DNA of 64,000 nucleotides from NCBI GenBank assembly GCA_030765065.1, contig CM060977.1:93575795-93639794 (forward strand), given 5' to 3'. Below, in pieces: positions 3,718-39,252 of this stretch. Each line of letters opens with the position of its first letter. The stretch's first letter is position 1. The position numbers were made by a program, and so were the translations under genes. This DNA comes from Deroplatys truncata. Taxonomy: Eukaryota > Arthropoda > Insecta > Mantodea > Mantidae. The notes below the pieces were generated by a model. It searched no databases and had not been told where the DNA came from. It worked only from the letters and a program-made list of their open reading frames with translations.

Positions 3718-4790
3718 TCACAGGTTGTGTTCAAAATCACCACCAGTAGCTTCAATACACGCTTCAGTCTGCTATGGAAAGACTGCTGCACACGTTCTAG
3801 CATTTCAGCGGAAATTTCAGAGCAGGCAGCAGTAATAACACGTAGTTTCATATCGTCTGGTGTAGTTTGTACATCCTTGTAGACAGTGTCTTTCAGACTT
3901 CCCCACAGCAAAAAGTCCAAAGGGGTCAGATCCAGTGAACGGGCGGCCAAGGTACAGGTCATCTTCGTCCAATCCAACGATTTGGAAACAATCCGTTAAG
4001 ACAAGCTGTAGTACTTCGTGCACAATGGGCTGGACAGCCATCATATTGGTACCGCAAGTTCCTCCTAGTCTGCAAAGGAACGTCTTCTAGCATCTGTGGC
4101 AGATGGTCTGTCAAGAGACTGTGATACTTGTGCGAGTTCATTGCTCCTTCTATGAACAAAGGGCCTATGAACTGATGGTTCTCTATTCCATGCCACACGT
4201 GTAAGCTCCATGGACGCTGACGTTCCAGTTGATGAAGCCAACGGGGATTGTCAACAGACCAATAGTGCAGATTTTTGCGGTTTACCTGGCCATGATTAGT
4301 AAATGTTGCCTCATCACTAAACAAGATACATGATGAATCTGGAGTATCATGTCTTAATGTCCATGTACAAAAGTTAACACGATTCCCAAAATTGTTTCCA
4401 TGCAGCTCTTGATGGAGAGAGATGTGATAGCGATGGAACCTATGTCGATAGAGAATGGGCAGTACACTTGCCTGACTTATGCCACCTCCACATGCAATTG
4501 TGCGGGAATTAATTTGCGGATCTGCTGCAACGGTGGCCGAAACTTTAATTTCTGCATCTTCTCCAGTCACTTGTTTGTTTCTGTTACGTTTTCTAGGTGT
4601 TACACTACCACTTTCACGTAATTGGTTGAAGAGGTTGATAAATAATTGCTGAGGTGGTTGACGTCTATTGGGATACGTTTTCGCATACACTGTACAGGAA
4701 CAAACTGAATTCTTCCTACACTCTTTATACACCATGAGCATGTCGGCTTTTTCTGCATTAGTAAACCCCAGCTTCTACTCACGTCGTACT
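3718..4790 (-). pseudogene. Tc1/mariner-like DDE transposase, frameshifted
   Basis: This would be the cut-and-paste transposase of the surrounding element. From the N-terminus (about 4782): a helix-turn-helix region containing NAEKAD and MLMVYKECRKN, then RESGSVTPRKRNR, then the catalytic core with LFSDEATF (first acidic residue), YQYDGCPAH (second) and, in another frame, SLDLTPLDFLLWG (third). The C-terminal signature ATGGDFEHNL ends at a TGA at 3718. The reading frame changes near 4741, near 4000 and again near 3760, and a stop follows RWIGRR. The catalytic motifs resemble the arthropod family often annotated with a DUF4817 helix-turn-helix domain. It is non-functional as it stands. Confidence 0.88.
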
Positions 4791-22985: not shown

Positions 22986-23132
22986 GCAAAAGTGAGGGTT
23001 TTTCTTAGTTTATTGTGCAGTCTTATAAATTGTGATTTATGTCTCAAGGTTATTGAGATCGTCGCTGGGCGGTTGTAAACAAGATAAATGCCACTCGCCA
23101 GCGTAAACACTGGGCGCGTTATCAGGAGATAA

Positions 23133-23260
23133 CTAGAACCTTCTGAAGCTTCTTCTCCTCCCGTCCTCGAGAAAGTGTGTCAAAATAGTTCTAGAACGTT
23201 CGAGAACCTTGTGGACAGATTGTCCTGATTATATAAGCGAGCGCTCTCGCGACAGTCGAA
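23133..23260 (+). promoter_or_regulatory. Heat-shock-type promoter: HSE arrays plus TATA box
   Basis: A perfect four-unit heat-shock element lies at 23188-23207 (TTCtaGAAcgTTCgaGAA), with a fifth imperfect unit to 23212. A second cluster lies upstream at 23135-23155 (GAAccTTC then TTCtGAAgcTTC). TATATAAG is at 23230-23237, 22 bp after the last perfect unit, so transcription would begin near 23255-23265. This layout (proximal HSE, TATA, then a long purine-rich leader) is known from Hsp70-class genes, where trimeric HSF binds alternating nGAAn units. Motifs and spacing are seen directly; activity is inference. Confidence 0.75.
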
Positions 23261-23556
23261 TTAGTTGCGATTCGGAGAGCAAGCGAGTGCGTCTCTGGTG
23301 GACATCAAGAGCGATTCTCTCAGATAGTTGGTGACGTGCTACTGAAGCGACGATTGCGGAGATCTTGTGTTCGACGCCCGAGTGAAGTGAAGAGTCTACG
23401 TGACGAAGGAAGTGAGGTCACGGAGAATTGAAGTAGTTTTGCTTAGTGAAGTTAAAGTATGAACGAAGTGAATTAGATAAAACAAAACCATGAAAAGTGA
23501 GAACTTAAACAGTGACGGTGAGAACTGAGTGGCAGTTGAAGAACTGACAGTCAAAA
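23255..23556 (+). other. Putative leader of the heat-shock promoter, cut by a DR1 repeat
   Basis: The DNA just downstream of the TATA box is less AT-rich than its neighbours and unusually A/G-rich (repeated GAAGTGA and GTGAAG). The first ATG in a favourable context is at 23490 (AAAACCATGA), giving a leader of about 230 nt. That frame stops after only 12 codons, and at about 23560 a minus-strand DR1 copy begins. No Hsp70, Hsp90 or small-Hsp coding sequence is found anywhere in the window. It could be a gene with a distant exon, a pseudogene truncated by repeats, or a captured promoter. Confidence 0.5.
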
Positions 23557-23561
23557 TGCAT

Positions 23562-24290
23562 TTTTACTTTCTCTACCACATATAATAAGTAGGGGAAGTG
23601 TTGCACTCCACTCAAAAAATTCGATACCGAGATTTCACCGGAAATACATGCTTTGAGGCCACATGCATAAAAAAGGCATTTTTAGCAAAAGTGTCTGTGA
23701 ACAGCATTACTCAAAAAAAGAACAGTCGGATAAATACCAAACTTCGTATTTGAGTTTAGTATCTTCCAAGGCTGCGACACGAAGATTTTCTAGAAAATCT
23801 CCCCAACCCAACTACCCCTTACACGGAACATTTTTCGAAAATTTTGACTTTCTAAAAATGACTCAAACGATTTTGATTAAAATACCATATATGAAAGATA
23901 TTTACATGGCAAATGAAATGTATATCTTGAATTTTCTGAGAAAAGCCTAGGAAGTCCTCTTCACTCGGAAGGAATTTTGTAAAATCTTGTGTAACTTGTA
24001 AATGTTAAGCGATAGATGTAAACCTATTGCATAAAAGATTACGTTTCTTTAAAACAAACAATTTACTTAATATAAGCTTTTTATGGCAAAACCCGTTTCT
24101 GAGATATCCGTTATTAAAAGATCGAATGTTCATTTCTTGGTCATTCTCTTAAAGTCCTTTCAACATTCAGTTGTTTCTCGCGATTGCATGGAAACAGTAT
24201 GGAACTTTAAAGCCAGCATATAGCGTCCAGTTTCTTAATATTTGAGATAGAGGGTAGAGAAGGTCATGCGAATGTATCACATCGGATTTT
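23562..24290 (-). repeat. DR1 (variant B), minus
   Basis: It begins TTTTTACTTTCTCTACCACA and ends near GATAGAGGGTAGAGAAGGTC. It lies immediately downstream of the heat-shock-type leader. Confidence 0.85.
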
Positions 24291-36056: not shown

Positions 36057-36388
36057 TAAGTGAACAAAGTTGAACATTCAGAGTTGATTTGGAACTGACT
36101 TCGACTGACTTGGGCCAGGAAGACTCGCCGAAATCCGAGGTGCCAGGTGAGCCTACCTGAGGTTCCACGTCTTGGAGGACTCCTTTGGCCGAGGAAGTAG
36201 CAATCAACCCAATTGTTACCAGGGGCGATCATCATCGGCCAACAGCACCCGAAGGTATTTGTTTGTGACGAACCGGTAGCAACCGTCGACGCGAGAGGAT
36301 CCAGCTTCGAGGAAAAGCAGAGGTCCGAACTTGGACGCCTTGGTCACCCTTCTCCTTCAAGAAAACAACAAGATTAGTTCAGTTCACA

Positions 36389-36892
36389 ATGACAGATGAG
36401 TTTGATGATGAATTATATATCCCTGTAACTCAAGCTGTAAAACTAATTTCAATTAAATTTAGTGGCAATCCTAAAGAATTACGGTCATTCTGTAATGGAG
36501 TAGAATCCGCAATCGGTTCTGTTCACCCTGATAAAGTTCCTATTTTACTGAAATTCATTGAATCAAAAATACTAAGGAATGCTAAGGAGAAAATTTTGTT
36601 TAGAACCGAACGAGTATCATGGAAATTTATTAAGGGAATTTTAGAGCAGCATAATGCAGTAAGACGACCGCTTGAATATTGTGCAAGCGTATCATTCACA
36701 GCCAGCCAAGGTCAAAATGAAACAGTAGCACAATGGGGTAATACGATAGATACTATGGAAATAGAGTTATACAGGGAAGGAAGATACAAAATATCCATAA
36801 AGGAACCACCCGCAAGGGTCACGGGAGCTCTGGTATATGTAGGAAAATTTCTGAAAGTGACGTATGTATCTGGCCTACGAGACGAAAGATAA
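36389..36892 (+). pseudogene. gag: gag-like N-terminal part of the provirus
   Basis: A 167-codon open frame starts MTDEFDDELYIPVTQAVKLI in a favourable context about 350 bp after the primer-binding site, the usual place for gag. The segment with ISIKFSGNPKELRSFCNGVE and KFIESKI resembles capsid regions of Gypsy/errantivirus Gag proteins, which form the particle shell. The frame ends early at 36892. Normal Gag of this group is roughly 400-450 residues, and the nucleocapsid part is found further on in broken form. Confidence 0.75.
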
Positions 36893-38204: not shown

Positions 38205-39252
38205 AATACAAGTGAGTGAAATTTACCATTGTTGATAGTTAAAAAAAAATTAGATACTTCAGGAAAAAGGAAATGGAGGGTCAATATTAATTTCAGGAAG
38301 CTGAATGAGATGACTGTAGGTGATAGTTATCCCCTACCTAATATTCAGGAGATATTAGACAATATAGGCGGAGCTAGATTGCTTACCGCATTAGATTGCG
38401 CCAGTGGATATTTGCAGGTTCCTAAAGCAGAGGAAGATCGGTGTAAAACAGCCTTCACCACATCTCAGGGCAATTTTGAATTCAAAAGGATGCCGTGTGG
38501 GTTAAAATAAGCACCAAGCATATCAGAGAATGATGAATATGTATTATCTGGTGTAATTGGCACAAAGTGTTTGGTATACATGGATGACATTCTAATTACA
38601 GGAGAATCGGAAGAATATAACATGAAACTGCAACAAGTGTTTTCAAAATTAAGGGAATTTAATCTAAAAATTGAGCCGGATAAATTTGAATGTCCTGAAA
38701 CCCGAGTTAAGCTATTTAGGACATATTGTTACGCCTCAAGGAGTTAAACCAGATTCCAAGAAAACGGAAGCTATGGTGGAGTTTCCAATTACCAAGAATG
38801 AAGAGGATGTAAAATCATTCCTAGGATTGGCTGGGTATTATAGAAAATTTATAGATCAGTTCAGTGCAATAGCTAGACTCCAAACCAATTTATTAAAGAA
38901 AGAGAACTCCTGACAATGGGGAGGTCCTGAACGGAACAGTTTCGACATGTTGAAATCAAAGCTTGTTAGCCCTCCCATACTTCAGTATCCAGACTTTACT
39001 GAACAGTTTATTGTTACGACAGACGCAAGTGCATATGTTATAGGAGCAATTTTGAGTCGAGCGCAAGTAGGAAAAGATAAGCCTATCTCTTACAGCAGTA
39101 GAGTATTTAACTCTGCCGAACATAACTATTCTACTACAGTAAAGGAAATTTTGGCTCTTGTATGGGCATACAAACATTTTCGTCCGTACTTATTTGGACG
39201 ACATTTTAAAACTTTAACTGATCATAAAGGTCTTGTTTTGATTTTAATGTAA
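38205..39252 (+). pseudogene. pol: Reverse transcriptase and RNase H of pol, broken
   Basis: RT landmarks in order: WRVNINFRKLNEMTVGDSYP, then LLTALDCASGYLQV (first catalytic Asp), FEFKRMPCGLK, then a frame change, CLVYMDDILI (the YMDD catalytic motif, intact) at about 38570, LSYLGHIVTPQGVKPD, and VKSFLGLAGYYRKFI. RNase H follows from about 38990: TTDASAYVIGAILS (first Asp), YSTTVKEILALVWA (Glu) and LTDHKGL (second Asp). Together these would copy genomic RNA to DNA. Stops at 38508, 38911 and 39250 and frame changes near 38525, 38545 and 38700 make it inactive. Confidence 0.85.

What the first reader, a model, noticed from the sequence alone, without database searches (positions are those of the whole stretch)
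23133..23556. Heat-shock promoter with no recognisable gene behind it
A perfect four-unit HSE (23188-23207), a second HSE cluster (23135-23155), TATATAAG at 23230 and a ~230-nt purine-rich leader form a textbook Hsp70-type promoter. The first ATG (23490) opens only 12 codons, and a DR1 repeat starts 70 bp later. Either a heat-shock gene was destroyed by repeats, its coding exon is far away, or the promoter was captured by a mobile element and could drive heat-induced transcription of DR1 and the SINEs.
Basis: partly seen in the sequence, partly recalled or inferred. Interest (0 to 1): 0.75.

Follow-up and report, generated by a model that had tools for sequence, protein, structure and literature searches.

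The report
Heat-shock promoter in retrotransposon LTR
The orphan heat-shock promoter in this praying-mantis DNA is the leftover end (a solo LTR) of an old, probably gypsy-type retrotransposon that has spread thousands of heat-shock-style promoters through the genome.

Summary
The promoter is real, but it is not the remains of a heat-shock gene. Bases 23031-23555 are a solitary LTR of a retrotransposon, most likely Ty3/gypsy, with family ends TGTGAC...GTCACA. Some copies carry 4-bp target duplications. Others have paired LTRs, or an LTR followed by a primer-binding-site-like motif; one has a decayed integrase. The host is a praying mantis, 4.29-Gb assembly. Of 40 copies compared, 28 keep at least four perfect HSE units in phase; 0 of 800 shuffles do. 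The 28-bp core occurs 2,523 times within 3 mismatches, reversed control 0. Perfect four-unit HSEs number 4,530 genome-wide, control 396. Of 20 such sites checked, 9 lie in this LTR family by a strict test, 3 more in a diverged subfamily. No Hsp70-family match lies on the window's contig, and five host Hsp70 upstream regions show no convincing homology to the LTR. The element thus seems to have its own Hsp-like promoter, as known for ONSEN, DIRS-1 and, weakly, Drosophila copia. Heat induction was not testable. Sampled copies are mostly old: median pairwise identity 71%.

The parts
23031..23555 (+). solo LTR (525 bp) of a retrotransposon family, most likely Ty3/gypsy; starts TGTGAT (family TGTGAC), ends GTCAAA (family GTCACA)
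   Evidence: alignment of the window with 20 genomic paralogues and three second LTRs, with boundaries
23136..23152 (+). distal HSE block: two perfect two-unit blocks one base out of phase (column majority of the other copies: four units in phase)
23189..23211 (+). proximal HSE: four perfect units TTCnnGAAnnTTCnnGAA plus an imperfect fifth (TTG)
23230..23239 (+). TATA box TATATAAGCG; 43 bp from the start of the matched core (2 bp before the first TTC) in 26 of the 34 copies where both were matched, 39-44 bp in the other 8
23258..23555 (+). presumed R/U5 leader of the LTR (the start site itself is inferred); the short ATG frames at 23459 and 23490 are not conserved
23556..24245 (+). DR1 repeat lying directly against the 3' edge of the LTR; not part of the element

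Best explanation
The feature is a solitary LTR of an old retrotransposon family, most likely Ty3/gypsy, in a praying mantis. In the source elements the U3 part of the LTR carried two HSE clusters and a TATA box. By inference, heat-shock factor (HSF) bound there under stress and started the element's genomic RNA about 25-30 bp downstream of the TATA box; the 'leader' is the R/U5 part. Recombination between the two LTRs (inferred) removed the coding interior here. What remains is a promoter without a gene, now abutting a DR1 repeat. Shown: LTR anatomy in the family, multiplicity, persistence of HSE and TATA, lack of convincing homology to the host Hsp70 upstream regions compared. Inferred: HSF binding, heat induction, start site, solo-LTR history of this copy.
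For: Multiplicity: the region hits 40 scored places of 4,169 first-look candidates, itself at 100% and the other 39 at 70-80% identity. LTR ends: most of 20 paralogues show TGTGAC/GTCACA-like ends and unrelated flanks; L014 and L016 are truncated or rearranged. Target duplications: by hand on the ends, 7 of the 20 paralogues (L010, L013, L017, L018, L022, L024, L027) have identical 4-bp flanks; an automatic scan of 40 copies found 6 identical of 25 testable solo candidates, against a 7% cross-pair rate, and adds L030 and L039. Paired LTRs: three loci have two direct LTRs (L011, L023, L028). Four loci have an LTR end followed by a primer-binding-site-like motif (L023, L028, L073, L074). L023's interior holds Integrase_H2C2 (E 1.8e-11) and two weak integrase C-terminal matches below cut-off. 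Promoter: longest exact HSE run, in either cluster, of 40 copies is 5 (2 copies), 4 (26), 3 (9), 2 (2), 1 (1); 800 shuffles never exceeded 3. Copy number: 2,523 cores within 3 mismatches, control 0.
Against: The window copy has no matching target duplication (AAAT / ATGC), so its solo-LTR history rests on its relatives. HSE-unit columns are above the LTR average (0.85 against 0.735) but not unique: 30 of 432 equally shaped column sets elsewhere in the LTR are at least as conserved. Of 40 copies, 12 have fewer than four perfect units. The gypsy assignment rests on one domain above cut-off; a further integrase-core-like frame of L023 (4470-4691) matched no Pfam family, and no reverse transcriptase was recognised among the frames listed for L023, L028, L073 and L074 (read by eye, only some scanned; L011's frames were not listed). 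No expression data exist here.
Confidence: 0.84

Rival explanations
1. The remains of a heat-shock gene: the promoter and 5' UTR survive, and the coding part was destroyed or displaced by repeats.
For: HSE, TATA and a long purine-rich leader resemble an Hsp70 gene start.
Against: Thousands of copies with shared LTR ends. None of 59 HSP70-family and 12 HSP20 matches lies on contig C3. Host Hsp70 upstream regions differ: exact HSE runs of at most three units and no convincing homology. No chaperone domain in the ten ORFs scanned near the promoter.
Confidence: 0.02
2. An LTR whose heat-shock promoter was captured from a host heat-shock gene long ago.
For: The combination of HSE clusters with a TATA box about 40 bp away is Hsp-like.
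Against: 40 LTR stretches against five host Hsp70 upstream regions gave 58 short matches at E up to 1; the best is 17 identical bases near the 3' end of the L031 stretch (31.9 bits, E 7.5e-4), and none covers HSE and TATA together. Hsp90 and other chaperone promoters were not compared; the one small-HSP stretch fetched, L076, seems to begin inside an intron and tells nothing.
Confidence: 0.08
3. The HSE-rich LTR is an evolutionary relic without heat response today: the sites serve another factor or are inherited from a dead ancestor.
For: Sampled copies are old (median pairwise identity 0.71; LTR pairs 74-79% identical). HSE columns are not uniquely conserved.
Against: 28 of 40 copies still hold four or more units. 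A diverged subfamily (three loci) has four-unit HSEs with different spacers at the corresponding place.
Confidence: 0.3

Closest known systems
ONSEN (Ty1/copia, Arabidopsis; Cavrak 2014, PMC3907296, passages seen)
   Same: HSF-binding element with several nGAAn units in the LTR; the element poses as a heat-shock gene
   Different: ONSEN is copia-type, has eight copies in Col-0 and shown heat induction. This one is probably gypsy-type, in an insect, in thousands of mostly old copies, with induction untested.
Drosophila copia (Strand and McDonald 1985, seen only as discussed in PMC3907296)
   Same: Insect LTR element with heat-shock consensus sequences in its promoter
   Different: Per that discussion copia lacks at least three more nGAAn copies needed for high affinity; this LTR has four or more in phase in 28 of 40 copies
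DIRS-1 of Dictyostelium (titles in the reference list of PMC2685390; those papers not seen)
   Same: Repetitive element whose terminal repeats contain a heat-shock promoter
   Different: DIRS-1 has inverted terminal repeats and is a tyrosine-recombinase element; this has direct LTRs and an integrase
HSE-bearing Helitrons of Caenorhabditis (PMC6927752, start of abstract and passages)
   Same: Transposons supply a substantial number of genomic HSEs
   Different: DNA transposon; the published study ties them to the heat-shock response, which is untested here

Membership tests
LTR retrotransposon (solo LTR) | Discrete unit with TG...CA ends and short inverted termini, same ends in many copies | tested here: met
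   TGTGAC...GTCACA-like ends in most of the 24 aligned sequences; the window copy itself starts TGTGAT and ends GTCAAA
LTR retrotransposon (solo LTR) | Short target-site duplication | tested here: inconclusive
   Absent at the window copy. In relatives: 7 of 20 by hand; 6 of 25 testable by scan against a 7% cross-pair rate
LTR retrotransposon (solo LTR) | Two direct LTRs and a primer-binding site after the 5' LTR in more complete relatives | tested here: met
   Two LTRs in L011, L023, L028; TGGTGTCAGGAGTGGGAT-like site after the LTR end in L023, L028, L073, L074. Its fit to tRNA-Leu is recalled, not tested
Ty3/gypsy | Gypsy-type integrase | tested here: inconclusive
   L023 interior: PF17921 E 1.8e-11, above cut-off; PF24626 2e-6 and PF22938 3.1e-5, both below cut-off; another frame of the same stretch matched nothing. 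PF17921 also occurs in BEL/Pao and retroviral integrases (recalled)
Ty3/gypsy | Reverse transcriptase and RNase H placed before the integrase | tested here: inconclusive
   No RT recognised among frames listed for L023, L028, L073, L074; these copies are deleted or interrupted
Heat-responsive retrotransposon (ONSEN-like mode of action) | Multi-unit in-phase HSE and TATA in U3 | tested here: met
   28 of 40 copies with at least four perfect units; 0 of 800 shuffles
Heat-responsive retrotransposon (ONSEN-like mode of action) | HSF binding and heat-induced RNA from the LTR | not testable with these tools
   No expression or binding data available
Hsp70 gene promoter | Drives an Hsp70 coding sequence and resembles the host's Hsp70 promoters | tested here: not met

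The most novel reading that the evidence does not exclude
This LTR family is the main source of strong HSEs in the mantis genome, roughly half of about 4,500. Many old solo LTRs still work as HSF promoters. Heat would then switch on thousands of LTR-started transcripts, draw HSF away from the host's own Hsp70 genes (whose upstream regions, in the five compared, carry at most three-unit HSEs), and offer ready-made heat control to neighbouring genes.
Probability: 0.2. Interest if true: 0.78.

Novelty: new member of a known kind. Interest (0 to 1): 0.5.

Why it matters
The best-studied strong HSE-bearing LTR seen here is a plant one (ONSEN). A family that has scattered thousands of Hsp-like promoters through an insect genome gives an animal system in which to ask whether stress-driven transposons rewire the heat-shock response. 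It also warns that an 'orphan heat-shock promoter' in a large insect genome may well be a solo LTR. The listings of my searches of the held papers showed no insect element of this strength (listings only, most papers not opened), and the held main texts of the two mantis genome papers do not contain the words 'heat shock'. Most subscription papers are not held.

Tried and rejected
- Destroyed Hsp gene, distant exon, captured Hsp70 promoter: rejected or made unlikely (see rivals).
- Selection specifically on the HSE: HSE-unit columns average 0.85 identity against 0.735 elsewhere, but 30 of 432 similar column sets elsewhere reach the same value, so this is not claimed.
- Small-HSP promoter comparison: the HSP20 search gave 12 matches, none on C3; the one stretch fetched, L076, shows no HSE of two or more units and seems to begin inside an intron, so it says nothing.
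- Complete interiors: L073 and L074 showed no recognisable long pol frame after the LTR end (two L073 frames scanned without a match), and the repeat finder reported no ungapped direct repeat of 100 bases or more in either.
- Rfam and tRNA scans of the window: nothing. Phage collection: nothing.
- The coiled-coil, gag-like frames of L023 and L028 gave only sub-threshold matches to coiled-coil families.

Full report
What is in the window. Searches confirm a four-unit perfect HSE (23189-23206), a TATA box (23230-23237) and a second HSE cluster (23136-23152) that is one base out of phase. A perfect four-unit HSE is expected 0.006 times per window from the reversed-pattern control rate. The first ATG of the leader is at 23459 (five codons), not 23490. 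The first is shared by 2 of 29 copies without a gap there, the second by the window alone of 39.

It is a repeat. A search of the window's own assembly (4.29 Gb, 818 contigs; the window is C3:93575795-93639794) returned 40 scored places out of 4,169 first-look candidates: the window itself at 100% and 39 others at 70-80% identity. I fetched 20 of these at 9 kb and the other 19 at about 2 kb. For the window copy, pairwise alignments reach up to 96 bases before and 432 bases after 23133.

It is an LTR. The alignment of the window, 20 paralogues and three second copies (24 sequences) shows sharp ends in most rows, TGTGAC-like at the left and GTCACA-like at the right, with unrelated flanks. L014 and L016 are truncated or rearranged. 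Ends read by hand give identical 4-bp flanks in 7 of the 20 paralogues: TTAT (L010), CTAT (L013), ATAT (L017, L018, L027), GTAT (L022, L024). A stricter automatic scan of 40 copies could place both ends in 27; 25 of these were solo candidates, 6 with identical flanks, against a 7% rate for mismatched pairs. That scan misplaced or missed some ends (for example L010, L018, L027), so both figures are given. The window copy has AAAT and ATGC, no duplication. DR1 homology begins at its very edge, so its flank may have been lost.

The family. L023, L028 and L011 each carry two direct LTRs, 78.7%, 73.6% and 73.7% identical to each other. After the LTR end, L023, L028, L073 and L074 read TGGTGTCAGGAGTGGGAT or close to it; I recall this as a tRNA-Leu type primer-binding site but did not test it. 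L023's short interior encodes an integrase zinc-binding domain (PF17921, E 1.8e-11) and, in another frame, two weak integrase C-terminal matches below cut-off; one further integrase-like frame matched no family. This points to Ty3/gypsy but does not prove it. No reverse transcriptase was recognised among the frames listed for L023, L028, L073 and L074, most of which were read by eye only; L011's frames were not listed. A query of 901 bases, the last 66 or so of the L023 LTR plus interior, found 40 scored of 3,468 candidates, itself at 100% and the others at 71-79%.

Promoter across copies. In 40 copies the longest exact HSE run, in either cluster, was five units in 2, four in 26, three in 9, two in 2 and one in 1. 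In 800 dinucleotide shuffles it was three in 9, two in 309 and one in 482. In the 34 copies where core and TATA were both matched, their distance was 43 bp in 26 and 39-44 bp in the other 8. HSE-unit columns average 0.85 identity, the TATA block 0.88, all other LTR columns 0.735. But 30 of 432 equally shaped column sets elsewhere are as conserved, so the HSE is well kept rather than singled out.

Genome-wide weight. The pattern TTCnnGAAnnTTCnnGAA occurs at 4,530 places against 396 for the pattern read backwards (the pattern is palindromic, so both strands report the same sites). The 28-base core occurs 2,523 times within three mismatches, control 0. I checked the first 20 four-unit sites listed, all on C1. 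9 lie within a match to an LTR of this family. 3 more (L057, L061, L066) lie in a diverged subfamily, judged by LTR homology on both sides of the HSE in L057 and L066 and on one side in L061, with a TATATA-containing stretch nearby and different HSE spacers. 2 lie in DR1-type repeats. 6 were not assigned. So about 45% (95% interval 23-68%) by the strict count, or 60% (36-81%) with the diverged copies. This is a small sample from one contig.

Relation to host heat-shock genes. The HSP70 family search gave 59 matches, none on C3. Upstream stretches of five intronless Hsp70-like genes show an exact three-unit HSE in three and none of three or more units in two. Against the 40 LTR stretches they gave only short matches, the best 17 identical bases (31.9 bits, E 7.5e-4) near the 3' end of the L031 stretch. 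One of the five genes carries a stop, and which of them are heat-inducible is not known. The HSP20 search gave 12 matches, none on C3.

Host and age. The COX1 copy in L075, probably a nuclear insert, is closest to praying mantises: Prohierodula sp. 92%, Sceptuchus simplex 91%, Statilia maculata 91% (all Mantodea). LTR copies have a median pairwise identity of 0.71 over 780 pairs. The highest are 0.93 (L042 and L044, 0.6 Mb apart on C12) and 0.81. Divergence from the column majority is 12-27%, the window copy 21%. The sampled copies are mostly old; a young subfamily was not specifically sought.

Comparison. HSE-bearing transposons are known: ONSEN in Arabidopsis (PMC3907296, passages), Helitrons in Caenorhabditis (PMC6927752, start of abstract and passages), DIRS-1 in Dictyostelium (titles in the reference list of PMC2685390) and, with fewer units, Drosophila copia (as discussed in PMC3907296). 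The Tenodera sinensis genome paper calls Gypsy/Dirs the predominant LTR type, and its held main text does not contain 'heat shock' (PMC10600911, passages); nor does that of the orchid mantis paper (PMC10415354, passages). This mantis family is a new member of that kind, with a strong HSE set for an insect LTR. Whether it answers to heat is the open point.

Noticed in passing
G000 contig C16 (707 Mb): 27 of the 40 scored matches to the L023 interior query lie on C16 (16.5% of the assembly), while only 7 of 40 LTR matches do (Fisher p 1.1e-5). C16 may be a sex or low-recombination chromosome where interiors are lost less often; the query itself came from C16, which may bias this.
   Followed up: partly
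L011:5244-8230: A long array of about 71-bp direct repeats made from the LTR leader, about 40 copies, next to a second LTR.
   Followed up: no
L048, L051: Some DR1-type repeats carry perfect four-unit HSEs (TTCTTGAATTTTCTGGAA, TTCTGGAATTTTCTGGAA), so a second repeat family also adds HSE-like sites.
   Followed up: partly
window:19333-21075: 1.7-kb GTG/GAT-rich degenerate tandem array with strong G over C skew, open in several frames on both strands.
   Followed up: no
window:36269-39252: Apparently a second LTR-type element: a gag-like frame (36269-36892, by eye) without a Pfam match and an RNase H frame (38914-39252; PF17919, E 4.2e-33).
   Followed up: no
window:59215-59524: 155-bp unit repeated twice in tandem at 96%.
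   Followed up: no
G000:C16:192-195, 611, 638 and 672 Mb: Clusters of COX1-like matches, suggesting repeated nuclear copies of mitochondrial DNA on C16.
   Followed up: no
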